A stretch of DNA of 58,963 nt from Dietzia aurantiaca (GTDB taxonomy: Bacteria > Actinomycetota > Actinomycetes > Mycobacteriales > Mycobacteriaceae): positions 1 through 58,963 of the forward strand of contig NZ_JAIFXZ010000019.1 in assembly GCF_021033825.1 (NCBI RefSeq). The letters are read 5' to 3'. Made by a program: the position numbers and the translations under genes. A model generated the notes under the pieces. That model ran no database searches and was not told the DNA's origin. It saw only the letters and a list, made by a program, of their open reading frames with translations. Position 1 is the first letter of the stretch, and each line of letters begins with the position of its first letter. This document shows, piece after piece, positions 1 through 6,382 of the stretch.

Positions 1-23
1 CGAGCAGAGTTACTACGCCGCTC

Positions 24-851
24 TCAAACGAGAGCTTCAACCCACATAGGAGCGGCGGAGAACCTGGGGCGGTTCAGCTTCTTGTTGTCGGCGGTGGGCT
101 TCTTTGTGTGGTGGATACCGAGCCATTCGACACCGCTGTTGACGAGCAGTTGGGTTGCGCGGTTCAGTCCGGACCCAGCTCGGTCCTCGTTCAAGTTCGG
201 AACGAGGTCCTTGTACGAGTCAACAACGACGGTCCCCGGTTCCGCACCAGCGCGGTACTTGCTGACCTCCACGACCCACTCCGCAAACAGCTCCGGGGCA
301 TCGGCGGCATTGAAGTCGGGCGCTCCGGGATAAATCACCAAACGCTCCCCTACCAGACGCGCGGACGGCGAGTCCGGATCGACCATCCGCTTGATGGAGC
401 GGCGAATCTGCGCCACACGGTCCATCGCGAGGTAGACCACGGGCCGTTCGTCCACTTCAACCGGGAACCCGAGTAGTGCTCCATTCCCGGAGTAGCCGAG
501 CCTTGCGAGGACGAGCTGCTGCGCAAGCGTCGACTTCCCCACGCCGGGTGGACCTGCGATCATCAGCGACTCACCGGCAGCCCACAGCACCTCTGAACCT
601 CGCCCCCACACGGGATCAGGTTCTGGTGCGCTGAACAGGAATTCTAGGCCCGTGACCGCGTTGCTTACTGCCCGTGCCATCACCTCCTCGGCACGCTCGC
701 GCGCCAGCATCTCGCGGGCGAGTTCTCGGCGACGAAGCGTCGACAGTTCCAGTTGGAGCTTCTGGGCTTCGCCATCGTCAAGCGTTACATCGTCACCAGC
801 GGCAATCGCATCAGGCACCGCGGTGAGGGGCGTTCGAGAAGGCTTGGTCAT
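24..851 (-). CDS. RecA-fold replicative helicase ATPase of an integrated element (RepA-like), C-terminus probably frameshifted
   Basis: The 275-residue product has a Walker A loop GPPGVGKST at about residues 100-108, a beta-strand plus acidic motif GTVVVDSY at about 206-213, and the HHTKK motif at about 247-251. Together these are typical of RepA/DnaB-like hexameric helicase ATPases carried by integrative plasmids and actinophages. Its start overlaps the end of the primase gene by 4 bases (ATGA), so the two are translationally coupled and probably form a primase-helicase pair. Family members usually continue well past the HHT motif. Here the frame ends after NRPRFSAAPMWVEALV, while another frame continues to the left edge with SFESGVVTLL, which looks like the missing strand. 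A frameshift near position 45-70 is therefore likely (inference). Confidence 0.75.
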   Translation of the reverse strand: MTKPSRTPLTAVPDAIAAGDDVTLDDGEAQKLQLELSTLRRRELAREMLARERAEEVMARAVSNAVTGLEFLFSAPEPDPVWGRGSEVLWAAGESLMIAGPPGVGKSTLAQQLVLARLGYSGNGALLGFPVEVDERPVVYLAMDRVAQIRRSIKRMVDPDSPSARLVGERLVIYPGAPDFNAADAPELFAEWVVEVSKYRAGAEPGTVVVDSYKDLVPNLNEDRAGSGLNRATQLLVNSGVEWLGIHHTKKPTADNKKLNRPRFSAAPMWVEALV

Positions 852-2089
852 GACGCGTCCTCCGAACGGGTCCGGAAGATCAGCCGGCCATCCGGCCCTC
901 TGGGGACGACGCCGCGCCTGCGCCCTTCTGCGACCGCCCCGCGCACCGCTCGCATGAACTCGACTTCGGCTGTAGCCGCATCGCGGGCGTGCCCATTGAC
1001 CTCAGGGAAATCGGGGGAACCCCTCCGGGCCATCGTCTCGCCGTAAGACCACTGGATTGATATCAAGGCGCATGCCAGACCGGCGTGGCCCTCGGTCGCC
1101 ATCATGACCGCCCGCCAGACGAGCTTTGTCATGTGCTCGTAGGCCGATGCTGCTCCGTCCGCACCGAAGCAGAACTCATCGACCAACCGGTGACGGTCGA
1201 CAAGCTCCCGCAACTCTGGGGACATCTCGTGCGCGTCAGCGTCCGCCCCCGGCACCGAGTTCACCCAGTCGACAACCTCACTTTCGGGAATCGCCCGGTC
1301 CACGCTTCGCAGCACCGACCGCCTGCCTGAGATCGGCTCCGCGCCGACCTCGCGGAGGATTCGACCGAGGCGAGAAAGCCCGATTGCCGGGGCGCGACCG
1401 CGCTTGTCGCGGGCTGCGGGGTCGAGGAGGTCTACGACGACCGGGGCCGGGCTATCAGGGTCCTTCACGTTCATGGACCCTGGCAGCCGCATGATCCGGG
1501 CAAGGTCGTACACGTTGTCCACCCGCGCCCCCGGCTCGACGCTGTCGGCGACACGCTGGACGAGACCGCCCCACCGCAGCACGAGGTCAGCAACCCAACC
1601 ACGATTCCGGTCGGTGACGTCGGCGGAGTCGTCGGCGGAGTTGCGCACCCGCCAATAGGCGTGGACGCCGTTCCCGGTGTGAACGACGGCAGCACACGGC
1701 GAGTCGAGCACGTCCGACAGCGCGTCCACGACCGCGAGCGCATTGTCCTCGGTGTGAAGGGTCTTATAGTCGAGGTCGCACCATAGCGCGCGAATCTTCG
1801 CCACGTCCCCGGCAGCCCGCGACACGGCTTCATCCGCCAGCGGACACACGGAAAAGTAGACGTTGTGATCGTCGGGCGGATCAACCTCTCGGAGGTCGCG
1901 CACGGCCATGATATCCGTGGGGAATCCTCGGACGGTGTCGACGCAGTACGCGAGACGGTCTGACGGTCGGTAGCCCAGCACCCGCAGGACTTCCCCGAGA
2001 GTAGGGCTCAGTGGGCGAATCGGCGTGGACGAGTGACGCTTGCCGGAGACCGGCGTTCGGGCGGATCGGTTACGTTTCTTAGCGGACAC
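848..2089 (-). CDS. Primase-polymerase (RepB/AEP-type) replication protein
   Basis: This 413-residue protein carries the archaeo-eukaryotic primase signature: a DxD metal motif in WCDLDYK (about 103-109), the HTGNGVHAYW motif (about 137-146), and a downstream RIMRLPGSMNVK block like the R-x-x-R-x-P-G-x-x-N-x-K motif of PrimPol proteins. It probably primes replication of the excised element together with the coupled downstream ATPase. The C-terminal half (about 270-413) is a helical region I cannot assign. The start is the ATG at 2089. A strong hairpin lies just upstream, between this gene and the preceding minus-strand gene. Confidence 0.8.
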   Translation of the reverse strand: MSAKKRNRSARTPVSGKRHSSTPIRPLSPTLGEVLRVLGYRPSDRLAYCVDTVRGFPTDIMAVRDLREVDPPDDHNVYFSVCPLADEAVSRAAGDVAKIRALWCDLDYKTLHTEDNALAVVDALSDVLDSPCAAVVHTGNGVHAYWRVRNSADDSADVTDRNRGWVADLVLRWGGLVQRVADSVEPGARVDNVYDLARIMRLPGSMNVKDPDSPAPVVVDLLDPAARDKRGRAPAIGLSRLGRILREVGAEPISGRRSVLRSVDRAIPESEVVDWVNSVPGADADAHEMSPELRELVDRHRLVDEFCFGADGAASAYEHMTKLVWRAVMMATEGHAGLACALISIQWSYGETMARRGSPDFPEVNGHARDAATAEVEFMRAVRGAVAEGRRRGVVPRGPDGRLIFRTRSEDAS

Positions 2090-2107
2090 AGGGGTCCTTC
2101 CAGTAAT

Positions 2108-2157
2108 GCGATACCCCGCCGCCAGCCAACCGGGATCGGCTGACGGCGGGGTATCGC
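2108..2157. terminator. Large perfect palindrome, terminator/attenuator or replication dyad
   Basis: A 14-bp perfect stem (2108-2121 with 2144-2157) encloses a second 4-bp AGCC/GGCT stem (2124-2127 with 2138-2141). On the plus strand it is followed by GTGTTTTAC. It separates the 254-residue gene from the primase gene on the minus strand. It could limit readthrough into the replication genes or be the origin of replication recognised by the primase-helicase pair. The sequence alone does not decide. Confidence 0.6.
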
Positions 2158-2204
2158 GTGTTTTACGGGTGATGTGGCGGAGTCCGCCAGGGGCAGCGGT
2201 GGGG

Positions 2205-2969
2205 CTACTCGTCGTCCAGCTCGCTCAGCGGCGGGACCTCGGTGAGCTTCACGCCCGCCTCAGTCGCCTCCAGGCGGAGGATCGCGGCGTGGCGGCTACA
2301 CAGGACGACCGGGATATGGACCATTCCCACCGACACCACGAACAACGGGGCGTCGAGAACGACGGGTCGCCGGTGGTCCCCCTCGACGTGCTCGAACTGC
2401 CCCGGCGATACGCACCGGTCACACGCCACGACGCGCCCCCGATGACGGGCCTGAGTCCACGTCTCCCGGTCGACCAACCGTGCGTACCGCAGAGGGTTCA
2501 TACTGTGCGGGATGACGAGATGGTGTATCTCGTCGCGGATGTCGGTGTCCGAGCGTCCGTACTCCTCCTCCAGCGAGTCGTCCCCTTCGGCAAAGCCGGT
2601 CAGACGGGCCTTCACGAACGGACGGTGAACCAGCAGGCACGGCTGGGACGGGTCTCCCTCGGCGGACTGCGTGAGGAGACGCTGCACATCCTGGGAGTCG
2701 TTTGCGCCCCAGTCCGGCACGAACTCTCCCGAAGGAGGAGAGACACGCGCCCCGAGGCGTCCCGCTCGCGCCATCTCCACGAACCACCGGAGCCATTCGA
2801 CTCGCCGGAACCCAGGCGAGTAGCCAGGTGTGGCGAGCTGGTCCGTCAACGCAGACGCCAGCGGCTCGCCCAGCTTCGAGTGGTGGTCGAGTCCGACTCC
2901 GAACATGAGCGCGGACGCAGCACGCTCCGCTGGGGTGAACTCTCGTGGCGTGTGGTTGTTGGCGCTCAT
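2205..2969 (-). CDS. Unknown element protein with a possible zinc-binding C-terminal site
   Basis: I do not recognise a family for this 254-residue protein. Residues from about 184 hold CDRC, and a CSRH pair lies about 40 residues further on, which together could form one zinc site. The first 150 residues are mixed charged and helical. There is no signal peptide or membrane segment. The start overlaps the upstream excisionase-like gene by 4 bases (ATGA), so it belongs to the same early operon as the replication genes. An HNH-like role is conceivable because histidines flank the cysteines, but no complete HNH motif is visible. Confidence 0.65.
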   Translation of the reverse strand: MSANNHTPREFTPAERAASALMFGVGLDHHSKLGEPLASALTDQLATPGYSPGFRRVEWLRWFVEMARAGRLGARVSPPSGEFVPDWGANDSQDVQRLLTQSAEGDPSQPCLLVHRPFVKARLTGFAEGDDSLEEEYGRSDTDIRDEIHHLVIPHSMNPLRYARLVDRETWTQARHRGRVVACDRCVSPGQFEHVEGDHRRPVVLDAPLFVVSVGMVHIPVVLCSRHAAILRLEATEAGVKLTEVPPLSELDDE

Positions 2970-3211
2970 GCGGCGTCACCGCCCGTCCCGACTCGGCGCA
3001 TCGACTTGATCCAGTCGAGGACGTCAGCCTCGCTGTACCAGTTGGCCACGCCAATCCGGTGCGCGGCGAGTCGACCGTCAATGGTTGCGTACTTCACCAG
3101 TCGCTCGGTGATGGCGGGGACGCCATTCTCGCGGCAGAAGGTCGGGACATCTGCCTTTCGCATCGAAGGCATCTCCGAAGGAGTGCGTGTGGTTCCAGGG
3201 GCCTTGCTCAT
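2966..3211 (-). CDS. Excisionase/MerR-like winged-helix DNA-binding protein
   Basis: This is a small 81-residue protein. A predicted helix-turn-helix around residues 18-45 is followed by YSEADVLDWIKSM, the terminal strand-helix pattern typical of phage Xis and element-encoded AlpA/MerR-like regulators. It is the first gene of the minus-strand early operon (Xis-like, unknown, primase, helicase) and may control excision as well as expression. The ATG at 3211 has the Shine-Dalgarno sequence GAGAGG six bases upstream. That sequence lies in one arm of an inverted repeat. Confidence 0.6.
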   Translation of the reverse strand: MSKAPGTTRTPSEMPSMRKADVPTFCRENGVPAITERLVKYATIDGRLAAHRIGVANWYSEADVLDWIKSMRRVGTGGDAA

Positions 3212-3217
3212 CGTGGT

Positions 3218-3232
3218 CCTCTCATAGAGAGG
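3218..3232 (-). promoter_or_regulatory. Inverted repeat covering the ribosome binding site of the Xis-like gene
   Basis: The repeat is CCTCTC-ATA-GAGAGG on the plus strand. The GAGAGG Shine-Dalgarno of the minus-strand gene is the arm nearest its start. The hairpin could hide the ribosome binding site, or the repeat could be an operator for the encoded protein. Confidence 0.4.
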
Positions 3233-3263
3233 GGCGTTCGGTATCCAACAGCAAATTGCAGAT

Positions 3264-3336
3264 CACGAGACACCCCAAAGCCGTACTTGAGTACGGCAGT
3301 GAAGCGGGCAGAAGCCCGCTCTTGCGTTGTCTCGTG
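3264..3336. other. Three-way-junction palindromic structure (packaging site, origin or structured RNA)
   Basis: A 9-bp outer stem, CACGAGACA (3264-3272) with TGTCTCGTG (3328-3336), encloses two perfect 7-bp hairpins. These are GCCGTAC-TTGA-GTACGGC (3280-3297) and AGCGGGC-AGAA-GCCCGCT (3303-3320). Single-stranded joints separate the arms. The arrangement resembles a cloverleaf without an anticodon and does not fit a simple terminator. It lies in the noncoding gap between the divergent excisionase-like and capsid genes. Its role is unknown. Confidence 0.65.
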
Positions 3337-3718
3337 ACCCGACGAACCGTCCATTACCTGTAGGAATTAGCATCGCCGCGCTGGTTCACCATCCGTTGCG
3401 GAGAGACCTGAGGTACTCCACATGTGGCCTGAACAGTCACGCACTCTTCAGTTGTCCGCCCCGTTTCCGGGGCCGAGCTTTACTATACCGGTTCGATCCC
3501 GAACGGGCCTATAGCGACCTGAACCGTCTGGCCTGTCTGACCTGCGAAGACCTTACCGAACCGGATTCAGCCGTCTCGGGAGTACCGTTCCCTTCGTAGG
3601 CGTCGGAGACGCCGCAGGATATTCACCGCCAACCGTGCAGCCAGGGGCAGCCAAGACAGGGCGGATCAACGAACACTTCAGCCGATCCGGCTACCCACTC
3701 TTGATTCGAGGCTCACCC
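3337..3718. other. Gene-poor stretch upstream of the capsid gene with further hairpins
   Basis: I see no convincing gene here. The stretch holds three more short perfect hairpins: GCCCCG-TTTC-CGGGGC (3458-3473), GTTCG-ATCC-CGAAC (3491-3504), and GGCGTC-GGA-GACGCC (3599-3613). Together with the three-arm structure just upstream, the 0.5-kb gap is unusually rich in structure. It may act as the capsid leader, a packaging signal or an origin. Confidence 0.45.
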
Positions 3719-4870
3719 ATGAACACTTACCGCTACCCCCAACTGACCGGCAGCGACGGTACAGCCCCCGGCGGCTACGTCACCGAGGGCGACGTCCTCG
3801 TCAACTCCACCGCCGACGGCGTAGACCTCAACGCGATCTACTCCGAGTACCGCGAGTCGCTGGAGCTGTACAACGCAGAACGTTCCGCGCTGGTGTCGCT
3901 GCTGTCGTTCTCAACCACCCGCGCATTCGACACCGTGCCCCAGGGCGCTCTGTCCGAGGGCTTCGAACTGGCGTCAGAGTTCGGCGTGCCGAAGGCAGCC
4001 GGGGTGCCGGTCGATGAGCTCCGTCTCGCGTACACGTTCGAGGACTACGACCGCGCAAGTCGGTTCACTTGGCGGGCATTGCGAGACATGACCCAAGATC
4101 AGGTGGATTCCGTCCACCGCGGCATCCTGGAGGCAAGCAACCGCCTCGTCACGACCTCAATCCTGGCGCGGTTGTTCGACCCGACCCAGGGCATCTCCCC
4201 CGAGGGCAACGCGGTCTACGGCCTCTTTAATGCAGACGGGTCATTTGTGCCCCCGTTTCTCGGTCGGTCGTGGGACCCGGCGACCACGAGCCACTACCTC
4301 ACCTCCGGCTCCGACACCCTCGATCCGTCGGATGTGGAAAGCCTGATCCGCCTCGTCAAGCTCAAGGGCCACACCGCTTCCGGCCAGCGGCTCCTGCTGC
4401 TGGTGAACCCGAGCGAGTCCGAAACCATCGCCTCTTTCCGCGTGGGGGTCGAATCCGCCGACCTCACCCGCGCCCGCTACGACTTCGTGCCCTCCGGGAC
4501 CGCCCCGGCGAGGTACGTCACCGAGCGACTGGAGGGCGCGGCCCCGCCGGTCGAGTACGGCGGGCTGCCGGTCATCGGGTCCTATGGGGACGCGCTGGTG
4601 ATCGAGTCGATGTTCGTGCCGTCCGGGTACGTGGCGATGGCCGCCAGCGGCGGGCCGAACTCCGACCGCAACGTCGTCGGCCTCCGAGAGCACGAGAACC
4701 CCGCCTACCGGGGCCTGCGCCTCATCCCCGGCAACCAGCAGCGCTACCCGCTCGTGGAGAGCTTCTACGCCCAGTCGTTCGGCGTCGGCGTCCGTCGCCG
4801 GGGCGCAGCCGCCGTCATGCAGCTCACCGCAGACGCGGACTACACCGCGCCGACCGGCTGGAAGTGGTGA
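3719..4870 (+). CDS. Phage-type major capsid protein (HK97-like, putative)
   Basis: The 383-residue soluble protein has no signal peptide. Its layout is typical of actinophage major head proteins: a variable N-terminal region, a middle block with GLFNADGSFVPPFLGRSW, a RLLLLVNPSE core strand, and a C-terminal domain ending in a run of small and aromatic residues. The start is the ATG at 3719, with GAGG eight bases before it. It is the only structural gene in the window: no protease, portal, terminase or tail gene is adjacent. A lone capsid gene beside a replication module is what capsid-encoding satellites show. Assignment to the capsid fold is from sequence character only. Confidence 0.65.
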   Translation: MNTYRYPQLTGSDGTAPGGYVTEGDVLVNSTADGVDLNAIYSEYRESLELYNAERSALVSLLSFSTTRAFDTVPQGALSEGFELASEFGVPKAAGVPVDELRLAYTFEDYDRASRFTWRALRDMTQDQVDSVHRGILEASNRLVTTSILARLFDPTQGISPEGNAVYGLFNADGSFVPPFLGRSWDPATTSHYLTSGSDTLDPSDVESLIRLVKLKGHTASGQRLLLLVNPSESETIASFRVGVESADLTRARYDFVPSGTAPARYVTERLEGAAPPVEYGGLPVIGSYGDALVIESMFVPSGYVAMAASGGPNSDRNVVGLREHENPAYRGLRLIPGNQQRYPLVESFYAQSFGVGVRRRGAAAVMQLTADADYTAPTGWKW

Positions 4871-5272
4871 CGGCGATGATCGGCGGAGACTTCCGGCGAC
4901 AGTCCACCGAGGCCCAGCGCCCCCGCCGGGACGGTCGAACCCGGCGCGGGCGAGTTCTCCTGGGGGCCTGGGCTGGCTCCTCCGGGAGTTGCGCCCTACC
5001 GGGGCCGCGAGGCCTCCGAAACGCTCGCCGCAGCCCCTACGGGCAAGCGCACGAGCTAAACAATCACAGACTCCCGGCGGATACCTGCGTGCCCCGTCGG
5101 GCGCTCATGAGACTCCCTCTCAGAGCACGTCCCCCGGTTCTTGCCCCAAGCTCGCCGGGTGACGACGAAGGGCGGCTGGCCTGTTCGACTTGTCACAGCA
5201 GCCGCCCAAGCCGGAACGCCGGTCCGTCTGGTCCAGTTGACATGTCCTGGTCAGTGGCGGCGAGTCCGACAA
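4871..5272. other. Gene-poor stretch after the capsid gene with a possible decayed small gene
   Basis: A GTG at 4867 overlaps the capsid stop (GTGA). After about 10 codons the frame that looks coding is a different one. It runs through EFSWGPGLAPPGVAPYRG and stops near 5055 without an in-frame start. This suggests a frameshifted remnant of a small downstream gene. The rest, to the hairpin at 5273, shows nothing I can support. Confidence 0.3.
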
Positions 5273-5314
5273 AGCGACCCCGCTTCGGTATCGAGCCACC
5301 GGAGCGGGGTCGCT
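5273..5314 (-). terminator. Bidirectional hairpin terminator between capsid and lipoprotein genes
   Basis: A 12-bp perfect stem, AGCGACCCCGCT (5273-5284) with AGCGGGGTCGCT (5303-5314), has an inner CGGT/ACCG pairing. Read on the minus strand it is followed by TTTGTC. It lies just beyond the lipoprotein stop and at the end of the capsid transcript, so it probably serves both converging units. Confidence 0.7.
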
Positions 5315-5322
5315 GCCGTTCG

Positions 5323-6003
5323 TCAGGGCATGTGCCGTGGACAGTAGACCACCATCGACATCATCGCGATATATCGAGCGGATGTGTCCGAGAGCCAGCC
5401 GTCACCCTCTATGGATTGGGCAGCAGAGGCCACCTCATCCGCAACTTGGGCAGCTGGGACCCCGCCGTCAAGCGCAGCGCAGACGGCCTCCGCCATCCCA
5501 TCCAGTCGACTTAACGGAACATCTCCGGCAACTGGCCGAACGGCGGCCGCAAGCTCCGAGGCACTGCGGCTGCCGATCTCCGGCTCAACCGGTGGGCGCC
5601 ATGACGTTGACGACGGAGCCTGAATTTGCAGAAGCTCCGGGCAATATTCGGCCATCGAGGCTTCAAGCACAACCGCTTCGTTCGGATAGTTCCAAGTCTC
5701 GCCAAACATAAGGTCAATATTCTCGGCGGCCTCGGACATCAAGCTGCCGCGCTCGATGATGTCGCAGCTGAACTGGGCGAAAGACTCCAGCGCCTCGGGC
5801 GGCTGCTTTCCGATGTGTGGCTCCAGCTCTGAGGCAAGGCGTACAGAGTTCCCGGTATAACTGTCTGGCCCGGTCGTTGCCGTGCTCTGGACCTCGGTCG
5901 TAGTCGCCGCCGTCGAGCCTTCGCCAGAATCCCCCGACGATGAGCACCCCGCCACGGCGAGCGCCGCAATCAATGCGACTGACGCCGCCACAAGTCTTTT
6001 CAT
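5323..6003 (-). CDS. Element-encoded lipoprotein with two DUF732-like repeats
   Basis: The 226-residue product begins with a lipoprotein signal, MKRLVAASVALIAALAVAGC, with the lipobox cysteine at residue 20, then a Ser/Thr-rich linker. Two similar segments follow, each with a Cys near the start and a YCP near the end (C80 to YCP 120-122, C175 to YCP 220-222). This is the pattern of mycobacterial DUF732 secreted proteins, and each pair could form a disulfide. It lies next to the attachment site, the usual place for cargo or lysogenic-conversion genes. A role in blocking entry of related phages is conceivable but not shown. Confidence 0.7.
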   Translation of the reverse strand: MKRLVAASVALIAALAVAGCSSSGDSGEGSTAATTTEVQSTATTGPDSYTGNSVRLASELEPHIGKQPPEALESFAQFSCDIIERGSLMSEAAENIDLMFGETWNYPNEAVVLEASMAEYCPELLQIQAPSSTSWRPPVEPEIGSRSASELAAAVRPVAGDVPLSRLDGMAEAVCAALDGGVPAAQVADEVASAAQSIEGDGWLSDTSARYIAMMSMVVYCPRHMP

Positions 6004-6280
6004 GAGAGAAACCTTAACGGAATGTTGTCGCTGTCACTACATCGTGTCCGCACCCGCGATTAGCTCAGCGCCGCGTCTCCATCCCGCCGGTCCCCCAGCG
6101 CCGTCGTCCGCGAGGGCAAAACCCGGTGAAAACCCGTGACTGGGGGCAATTCGAGGGCGTTTCGGAGGGGTTCCGGGCCGGATCGAAGGCGACCCGAAAG
6201 CGTCTCAATCTATGCCTTGACCTGCGTGGACCCCAACAATCCTCGCAGGTCAGCGCGGTCCACACGAACCCACCCCGGTC
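6004..6280. other. Element right-end region with inverted and direct repeats, no gene
   Basis: I find no coding region here. There is a 9-bp inverted repeat TGACCTGCG (6218-6226) / CGCAGGTCA (6244-6252), interleaved with GTGGACC (6226-6232) / GGTCCAC (6257-6263). AAAACCCG occurs at 6118-6125 and 6129-6136 and again in the tRNA fragment at 6287-6294. Such spaced repeats beside an attachment core could be integrase or excisionase binding sites. The segment from 6129 (AAAACCCGTGACTGGGGGCA) also looks like a contracted copy of the tRNA 3' end. Confidence 0.4.
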
Positions 6281-6328
6281 GTTTTCAAAACCCGTCCAGT
6301 GTCGGTTCGAGTCCGACCGGGGGCACCA
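6281..6328 (+). repeat. tRNA 3'-half, probable attachment site (att) of the integrated element
   Basis: The sequence has an anticodon-loop-like GTTTTCAAAAC (6281-6291), a perfect T-arm GTCGG-TTCGAGT-CCGAC (6301-6317), an acceptor strand CGGGGGC (6318-6324), discriminator A, and an encoded CCA (6326-6328). No matching 5' half (GCCCCCG and D-arm) lies upstream, so it is not a functional gene. It fits the duplicated tRNA end left by site-specific integration. The intact tRNA and the integrase should then lie left of the window. The parent tRNA cannot be named with certainty. Confidence 0.65.
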
Positions 6329-6382
6329 CGTACGGCCGACCCTCTCCCGCCCTGTCCCACAGACGTGTCCCCGGACCGTCAT

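What the first reader, a model, noticed from the sequence alone, without database searches (positions are those of the whole stretch)
24..6328. Integrated element with primase-helicase replication and a lone capsid gene: candidate capsid-encoding satellite
Between the left edge and a tRNA fragment are a PrimPol, a coupled RecA-like helicase, an excisionase-like regulator, a phage major-capsid-like protein and a lipoprotein, but no portal, terminase or tail genes. Known phage-inducible satellites that encode their own capsid have this reduced content. If confirmed, this would be a Dietzia-type actinobacterial example that takes tails from a helper phage. The integrase and possible further head genes may lie left of the window.
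Basis: partly seen in the sequence, partly recalled or inferred. Interest (0 to 1): 0.75.

Follow-up and report, generated by a model that had tools for sequence, protein, structure and literature searches.

The report
Phage satellite with a lone capsid gene
A roughly 12-kilobase piece of parasitic DNA in an actinobacterial chromosome carries a single virus-shell gene; many relatives of the host carry the same kind of shell gene, often with a DNA-packaging starter, which suggests a family of parasites that repackage themselves with parts of the viruses infecting their bacteria.

Summary
The window starts at a contig break; the rest of the element is on contig C13: an intact tRNA-Leu(CAA) with a 46-bp att copy identical to window 6284-6329, an integrase and the other helicase part. 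Contig ends lie in an insertion-sequence copy. In four of eight congeners the site's flanks are 0.7-2.7 kb apart. The 383-aa protein is a Patience-like HK97-fold major capsid protein (MCP). No terminase, portal, protease, scaffold or tail gene was detected.

It is not alone. In 80 bacterial loci with this MCP no other head or tail gene was detected; recombinases and primase occur in 60-62 each, a relative of the phages' small terminase subunit (TerS) in 65. One fully supported branch separates satellite from phage MCPs. Twelve related phages lack integrases.

Best reading: a PICI-like satellite family that brings its own shell protein, usually its own TerS, and borrows the rest from virulent phages. 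Precedents exist (SaPIbov5 Ccm; candidate Mycobacterium PICIs). This copy lacks TerS and looks damaged. Helper, induction and particles are untested.

The parts
1..75 (.). End of a multicopy insertion sequence at the contig edge (IS3-like: a label recalled from its terminal repeat, from no call); it interrupts the helicase gene
   Evidence: The same ~76 bp stand at the ends of contigs C33, C35 and C37 (95% identity); the four copies diverge right after the terminal repeat, and C13 ends in a sequence closed by the same repeat, inverted in element orientation
24..851 (-). N-terminal part of a RecA-like (AAA_25) replicative helicase; the C-terminal part is L010:2-667(+)
   Evidence: AAA_25 1.4e-16; phrog_6012 positions 104-300 of 447 here and 310-425 in the C13 part
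848..2089 (-). PrimPol-type primase
   Evidence: phrog_2478 DNA polymerase/primase 3.6e-30
2205..2969 (-). 254-aa protein of unknown function, shared with the G008 element (there read as two overlapping ORFs)
   Evidence: 73-87% identity in the G008 island; no significant Pfam, PHROG or PADLOC hit; 3 of 397 genomes of the order match: its own and two weakly
2966..3211 (-). Excisionase-like small protein
   Evidence: Profile of 51 proteins from 43 of 61 islands matches at 6.3e-18
3212..3718 (.). Divergent intergenic region between the replication operon and the capsid gene; promoters or operators would be expected here (inference)
   Evidence: Only weakly scored frames in the gene caller
3719..4870 (+). 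Lone HK97-fold major capsid protein, Patience-like family, 383 aa
4871..5060 (+). Remnant of a small gene that follows the capsid gene in 14 of 61 islands; open in G008, frame-broken here
   Evidence: Profile hit 4.3e-6 at window 4880-5056 and 4.1e-5 in G008; frames compared
5323..6003 (-). Cargo: DUF732 lipoprotein
   Evidence: PF05305 2.3e-12
6284..6329 (+). attR: 46 bp identical to the 3' end of tRNA-Leu(CAA); attL with the intact tRNA gene is L010:5653-5698

Best explanation
The element is one member of a widespread actinobacterial family of phage satellites of about 12-13 kb that sit in tRNA genes. Shown by sequence: it lies between att copies of a tRNA gene, encodes a tyrosine integrase, a primase/helicase module and an excisionase-like protein, and carries one phage virion gene, a Patience-like MCP; most relatives also carry a TerS homologous to the TerS of phages with the same MCP type. 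Inferred: on infection by a Patience-like virulent phage the island excises and replicates. Its MCP then replaces or co-assembles with the helper's MCP around helper portal and scaffold, giving shells of different (probably smaller, T=3 or T=4) size. The satellite TerS directs the helper's large terminase to load satellite DNA, and helper tails complete the particle. This copy has an IS in its helicase, no detectable TerS and a broken post-capsid gene, so it is probably impaired, or relies on helper TerS and replication proteins.
For: att site, tRNA, and flanks 0.7-2.7 kb apart in four of eight congeners. Capsid family and fold. In 80 genome loci, 0 with a detected head or tail gene besides the MCP; serine recombinase 62, tyrosine integrase 61, primase 60, TerS 65, all four 36. 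A satellite-only TerS profile finds the annotated TerS of Patience (3.4e-12) and Onyinye (3.5e-11) and 11 further phage ORFs, 1.2-5.1 kb upstream of terL centre to centre. One change separates satellite from phage MCPs on the tree, SH-aLRT 100. 25 rows of tRNA-anchored islands of 8.5-13.7 kb, median 12.7 kb. MCP under purifying selection. 0 of 12 related phages matches Phage_integrase or Resolvase.
Against: No helper, induction, excision or particle has been observed. TerS was not detected in the window element or G008, nor in 15 of 80 loci, among them six islands inspected in Rhodococcus, Gordonia and Williamsia, so it is not universal. The TerS profile hit only 11 of 79 phage loci, of which 34 show terL; cut-off contigs may explain part of this. 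No Dietzia phage is among the hosts listed for this MCP. The helicase of this copy is interrupted. The profiles used for absence were trained on Patience-like head modules and the protease profile was weak (3 loci); the PHROG scan of 105 further island proteins printed only 25 of 58 matching families. A foreign head gene in some island is therefore not strictly excluded.
Confidence: 0.7

Rival explanations
1. Anti-phage interference island: the lone MCP is a dominant-negative subunit that poisons the assembly of infecting Patience-like phages, and the island spreads only by ordinary means.
For: A capsid homolog can block helper reproduction (SaPIbov5 Ccm, passages of PMC6092414 and PMC8569155); cargo genes flank the core, and the G008 island carries an HNH gene resembling restriction enzymes.
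Against: 65 of 80 related loci also carry a TerS homolog, which is useful for packaging own DNA; excisionase-like and replication genes recur; spread across many genera.
Confidence: 0.13
2. Decayed prophage in which only the capsid gene survived.
For: This copy is damaged: IS in the helicase, broken small ORF.
Against: Recombinase and primase genes recur in 60-62 of 80 loci and none of the 80 has a detected head or tail gene besides the MCP; satellite MCPs lie apart from all 72 phage MCPs in the tree, whereas decay would scatter them; tRNA-anchored islands cluster near 12.7 kb. dN/dS is about 0.12.
Confidence: 0.04
3. Self-sufficient capsid use (encapsulin-like container or gene-transfer shell) with no helper head parts.
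Confidence: 0.05
4. Capsid-forming PICI (cf-PICI) whose remaining head genes were missed at the contig break.
For: The window does begin at a contig end.
Against: The other half is on C13 up to the intact tRNA and holds only an integrase, two ORFs that look like membrane proteins and the helicase C-part; the two helicase pieces match one profile with a gap of about 10 positions; no head genes were found in G008 or in 80 related loci.
Confidence: 0.03

Closest known systems
SaPIbov5-type PICI with Ccm (capsid homolog); abstract, outline and first part of the Discussion of PMC8569155 read
   Same: A satellite that carries a homolog of a helper major capsid protein while relying on helper proteins for the shell; Ccm enters the pentamers and shifts the helper shell from prolate to a T=4 isometric shell; [quoted passage not shown]
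   Different: Different MCP family (Patience-like; several of its phages have an annotated scaffold); the relatives here are phages without integrases; islands have PrimPol, and serine plus tyrosine recombinases; most have TerS. Ccm is described as lacking a long N-arm and unable to form shells alone; this MCP aligns with phage MCPs from residue 19 to 382 in the best hits
Candidate Mycobacterium PICIs (integrase plus major capsid protein), incl. phiRv1/phiRv2; section 9 and passages of PMC10654092 read
   Same: Small integrated elements in mycobacteria defined by integrase and MCP, some with helicase or terminase genes, some integrating at tRNA genes
   Different: That set has highly diverse capsid genes and some elements have scaffold genes. 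The single capsid lineage, the TerS link, the integrase-free relatives and the range beyond mycobacteria are not described in the section read. Relation to phiRv1/phiRv2 not tested
PmCI172 and EcCICFT073 (passages of PMC6092414)
   Same: PICIs said to encode a capsid protein homolog; PmCI172 makes small heads
   Different: Gram-negative hosts; sequences not compared here
Capsid-forming PICIs (cf-PICI); passages of PMC10690885 and PMC10803314
   Same: Satellite of about 14 kb with its own capsid gene
   Different: cf-PICIs encode capsid, protease, portal, connectors and terminase; here MCP with or without TerS
Patience-like actinophages (structures 8giu, 8saj; passages of the preprint PMC10635136)
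   Same: Same MCP family and fold; TerS homologous to the island TerS
   Different: Phages of 65-70 kb with complete head and tail modules; their MCPs are on the other side of the tree
PICMIs, marine satellites of virulent phages; passages of PMC10803314
   Same: Small satellites of virulent phages with excision and replication genes
   Different: PICMIs encode no capsid-remodelling gene

Membership tests
[quoted passage not shown]
   phrog_3990 2.1e-103; at least 80% of the query covered in 152 of 152 phage records matched
[quoted passage not shown]
PICI-like satellite | Integrase with att site, size well below the phages | tested here: met
   46-bp att, tRNA-Leu, about 12.0 kb plus one IS; related phages listed are 56-72 kb
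PICI-like satellite | Own replication module | tested here: met
   PrimPol and AAA_25 helicase; the helicase is interrupted in this copy
PICI-like satellite | Packaging redirection gene (TerS or similar) | tested here: inconclusive
   Not detected in the window element or G008; present in 65 of 80 related loci
PICI-like satellite | Master repressor (Stl-like) or activator that senses the helper | not tested
   No repressor assigned in the window element; a HTH regulator occurs in 9 of 61 islands
PICI-like satellite | Induction by, and packaging with, a helper phage | not testable with these tools
   Needs infection experiments
cf-PICI | Full set: MCP, protease, portal, connectors, TerL and TerS | tested here: not met
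   No hit for terL, portal, protease, connectors in the window or C13 parts, nor in 80 genome loci
SaPIbov5/Ccm-type satellite | Homolog of a phage major capsid protein as the only head protein | tested here: met
   (homology to a phage MCP family; the actual helper is unknown; relation to Ccm itself not compared)
SaPIbov5/Ccm-type satellite | Capsid homolog occupies pentamers and shrinks the shell | not testable with these tools
   Needs cryo-EM of particles
Ordinary prophage | Complete head and tail genes in one element | tested here: not met
Encapsulin | Closer in structure to encapsulins than to phage capsids | tested here: not met

The most novel reading that the evidence does not exclude
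An old satellite lineage owns its own capsid: a single Patience-like MCP lineage, captured once from (or ancestral to) virulent T=7 actinophages, has since travelled in PrimPol/TerS satellites across many actinobacterial genera and has evolved to build small shells on helper portals, so that the satellite swaps the whole shell protein rather than remodelling the helper's.
Probability: 0.35. Interest if true: 0.75.

Novelty: new variant of a known kind. Interest (0 to 1): 0.56.

Why it matters
Known satellites remodel a helper's shell with a small protein, add a capsid homolog (SaPIbov5), or build whole heads (cf-PICI). A widespread family that pairs just two virion genes, TerS and MCP, and whose sampled phage relatives lack integrases, would fill the gap between those strategies and point to satellites of virulent phages in Mycobacterium, Gordonia, Rhodococcus and relatives, where large phage collections exist for testing. 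The Patience-like family has solved capsid structures, so how one MCP lineage changes shell size becomes directly testable. It could also bear on phage resistance of these hosts.

Tried and rejected
Single-protein scans of genome contigs and viral contigs with the window MCP found nothing; alignment A1 (14 island MCPs) was needed. No plasmid in PLSDB matched the MCP. The first structure model, from 14 sequences, was poor (pLDDT 55); with 80 sequences it was good. A TerL query found nothing in the window's own genome, but the tool warns that an empty answer without a positive control shows nothing, so absence of a resident helper prophage is not claimed. Residues that separate satellite from phage MCPs (21 positions; 63, 66, 70 and 71 lie at the E-loop by my reading) may reflect changed shell geometry; this is not a test. 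The 254-aa protein, the two C13 ORFs that look like membrane proteins, and island families of 240, 239 and 128 aa found no function. Decayed prophage, encapsulin and cf-PICI readings were set aside for the reasons given under rivals.

Limits of the counts: the genome scan kept the best 80 of 109 relatives and the viral scan the best 80 of 332, both ranked by likeness to an island alignment; 24 of 80 genome loci have under 8 kb on one side of the MCP. The 90 satellite and 79 phage loci include islands fetched twice from two collections. Rows dropped from the tree: MCP under 300 aa, loci L036-L048, and rows with identical tails, 163 to 145; then 10 reference phages were added. The tree is a quick search, without bootstrap, with long-branch warnings. 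Four unclassified rows fall among the satellites, so that the satellite label alone needs 5 changes, and one phage row (L206) stands nearest the satellites. Of 448 unassigned proteins from 61 islands, 249 clusters were formed and 105 representatives scanned. Of 85 loci given to the att search, 28 gave a repeat and 25 rows were tRNA-anchored.

Most subscription papers are not in the library, so this does not show that it is unpublished. Read in parts: PMC10654092, PMC8569155, PMC10690885, PMC10803314, PMC6092414, PMC10635136, PMC10023795; other papers only as listings.
Full report
WHAT IS THERE. The window is the whole of contig C11 of a 37-contig genome of 3.77 Mb. Its first 6.3 kb hold part of a RecA-like helicase, a PrimPol-type primase, a 254-aa protein and an excisionase-like protein (all minus strand), a capsid gene (plus strand), a DUF732 lipoprotein (minus strand) and a 46-bp copy of a tRNA 3' end. 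The same 46 bp end an intact tRNA-Leu(CAA) gene on contig C13 (L010:5653-5698; tRNA 5654-5730). From that tRNA to the end of C13 come two ORFs that look by eye like membrane proteins, one 803-aa ORF with a Resolvase domain and a Phage_integrase domain, and the C-terminal part of the helicase. The two helicase parts match neighbouring positions of one profile, phrog_6012: 104-300 on the window and 310-425 on C13. The window begins in a repeat that also ends contigs C33, C35 and C37, and C13 begins in a sequence closed by the same terminal repeat. The simplest reading is one insertion sequence in the helicase gene, which broke the assembly. The element is then 5.65 kb plus 6.33 kb plus one IS copy. 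Its G+C is 63-65%, against 68-70% in the flanks.

IT IS INTEGRATED. The element lies between the tRNA end of C13 (next gene by eye: polA) and a transporter gene (by eye) that follows in the window. In five of eight congeneric genomes searched, both flanks were found on one contig: 0.7 kb apart in G019, 2.4 kb in G012 and G016, 2.7 kb in G002, and 35.6 kb in G015, where something else occupies the site and an extra att-like copy lies between. In the other three (G008, G020, G022) the transporter flank was not found beside the tRNA.

IT IS ONE OF MANY. Of 23 genomes of the genus (its own included), one other (G008) has the gene, 93% identical, in an island with a serine recombinase, a tyrosine integrase, a different primase and different cargo. 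Between these two capsid genes dN is 0.044 and dS 0.379, so the gene is kept by selection. Among 397 genomes of the order, 16 had a match, its own and three short or weak ones included. A scan with 14 island MCPs gave 109 loci in named genomes, of which 80 were kept: mostly Mycobacterium and relatives, Rhodococcus, Tsukamurella, Gordonia and Williamsia, and farther out Nocardia, Hoyosella, Micromonospora, Nocardioides, Demequina and Agromyces.

THE TWO KINDS OF NEIGHBOURHOOD. Profiles for terL, portal, protease, the gene two before the capsid (gp10; the genes in this position are annotated as scaffold in Patience, Onyinye and others), two connectors, major tail protein, tail chaperone and tape measure were built from phage members and run on all ORFs. 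The protease profile was weak (3 loci). In the 80 genome loci: 0 with any of these; serine recombinase 62, tyrosine integrase 61, primase 60, TerS 65, all four 36. In the 56 loci with at least 8 kb on both sides: 0, 48, 50, 48, 50 and 30. In the 80 viral loci: 77 with head or tail genes; the other three (L131, L132, L138) carry an integrase instead. Of 175 loci with a long MCP, 90 were satellite-like, 79 phage-like, 6 had neither module and none had both (some islands counted twice). As a further check for foreign head genes, 105 representatives of 249 clusters of unassigned proteins from 61 islands were scanned against PHROGs. Of 58 matching families the 25 printed are primases, helicases, regulators, transposases and unknowns; 33 were not shown.

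TerS. The gene between primase and serine recombinase has weak PHROG matches to terminase small subunits (best 1.1e-5; best match overall phrog_3678, unknown). A profile made from 63 satellite members only, run on 5,799 phage ORFs, finds the annotated TerS of Patience (3.4e-12) and Onyinye (3.5e-11) and 11 other ORFs (1.4e-16 to 1.6e-4), 1.2-5.1 kb upstream of terL, centre to centre (annotation). These 11 are from 79 phage loci, 34 of which show terL, so many phages gave no hit. The islands thus share two virion genes with one phage group: TerS and MCP. The window element and G008 have no TerS hit in six frames, nor do six islands of Rhodococcus, Gordonia and Williamsia that I inspected; 15 of 80 loci have none.

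ONE LINEAGE. On a tree of 155 MCPs (79 satellite, 72 phage, 4 unclear), satellite and phage labels need one change, and the phage set is one side of a branch with SH-aLRT 100; shuffled labels need about 52. An earlier tree of 145 rows gave the same. These are quick searches without bootstrap, with long branches, and the root is unknown, so the direction of capture is open. Decaying prophages would not be expected to give this pattern.

SIZE AND SITES. In 25 rows with a repeat of at least 18 bp anchored on a tRNA gene, islands measure 8.5-13.7 kb, median 12.7 kb (L037 and L060 are the same island). They use tRNA-Leu, -Gly, -Met, -Lys and -Arg. If capacity scales with T to the power 3/2, a T=7 shell for 65-70 kb corresponds to 28-30 kb at T=4 and 18-20 kb at T=3, so a single island would suit T=3, or two copies T=4. 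This is inference.

THE PHAGES. None of 12 phages with this MCP, from nine named genera and two unclassified, matches Phage_integrase or Resolvase, while the control genomes ring (14 of 14 and 10 of 14; taxonomy). They look virulent; other lysogeny systems were not tested. No Dietzia phage is among the organisms listed.

MECHANISM. Shown: integration, replication genes, lone MCP under selection, TerS homology in relatives, one MCP lineage in the sample. Inferred: helper-triggered excision; satellite MCP building or co-building the shell on helper portal and scaffold; satellite TerS steering helper TerL; helper tails. The SaPIbov5 protein Ccm shows that a lone capsid homolog can do such work: it takes the pentamers of the helper shell and turns a prolate into a T=4 isometric shell (PMC8569155, abstract and first part of the Discussion). 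The full set in cf-PICIs (PMC10690885, passages) is clearly different. This copy has an interrupted helicase, no TerS and a broken small gene after the capsid; it may no longer be able to move alone.

NOVELTY. PMC10654092 (section 9 read) already lists candidate Mycobacterium PICIs defined as integrase plus major capsid protein, some with helicase or terminase genes, and says that induction by phages has not been demonstrated. Some islands here may be among them; their coordinates are in supplements I could not open. I rate it a new variant of a known kind.

Noticed in passing
L010:1544-3955(+): One 803-aa ORF joins a serine recombinase (Resolvase, 4e-37) and a tyrosine integrase in frame; no other ORF in the set was hit by both profiles. 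Why most islands keep both recombinase types is unexplained.
   Followed up: partly
window 2205-2969(-), L016:13739-14478(-): The 254-aa protein is intact in the window and split into two overlapping ORFs in G008; no significant family match; next to the excisionase-like gene in both.
   Followed up: partly
L017:1711-2601(-) and 2672-3421(-): The G008 island carries a ParB-like gene and an HNH endonuclease resembling type IV restriction enzymes: possible defence cargo.
   Followed up: no
G015:C1 about 1538531-1574151: In this congener the same tRNA-Leu site holds about 36 kb of other DNA with an extra att-like copy at 1559444-1559489: stacked elements, possibly another island or prophage.
   Followed up: no
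L047, L108, L116, L118, L121-L123, L125, L128-L130: In a subgroup (Rhodococcus, Demequina, Nocardioides, Piscicoccus, Agromyces, Cryobacterium) the TerS hit lies 0.8-1.5 kb from the capsid gene instead of beside the recombinases.
   Followed up: no
window 2108-2157: A 50-bp imperfect palindrome (84% match to its own reverse strand) just upstream of the primase gene; terminator- or origin-like.
   Followed up: no
L081:11101-11394(+) and 13 other islands: A small protein of about 97 aa follows the capsid gene in 14 of 61 islands, with no PHROG hit; it could be a decoration or scaffold-like partner of the satellite capsid.
   Followed up: partly
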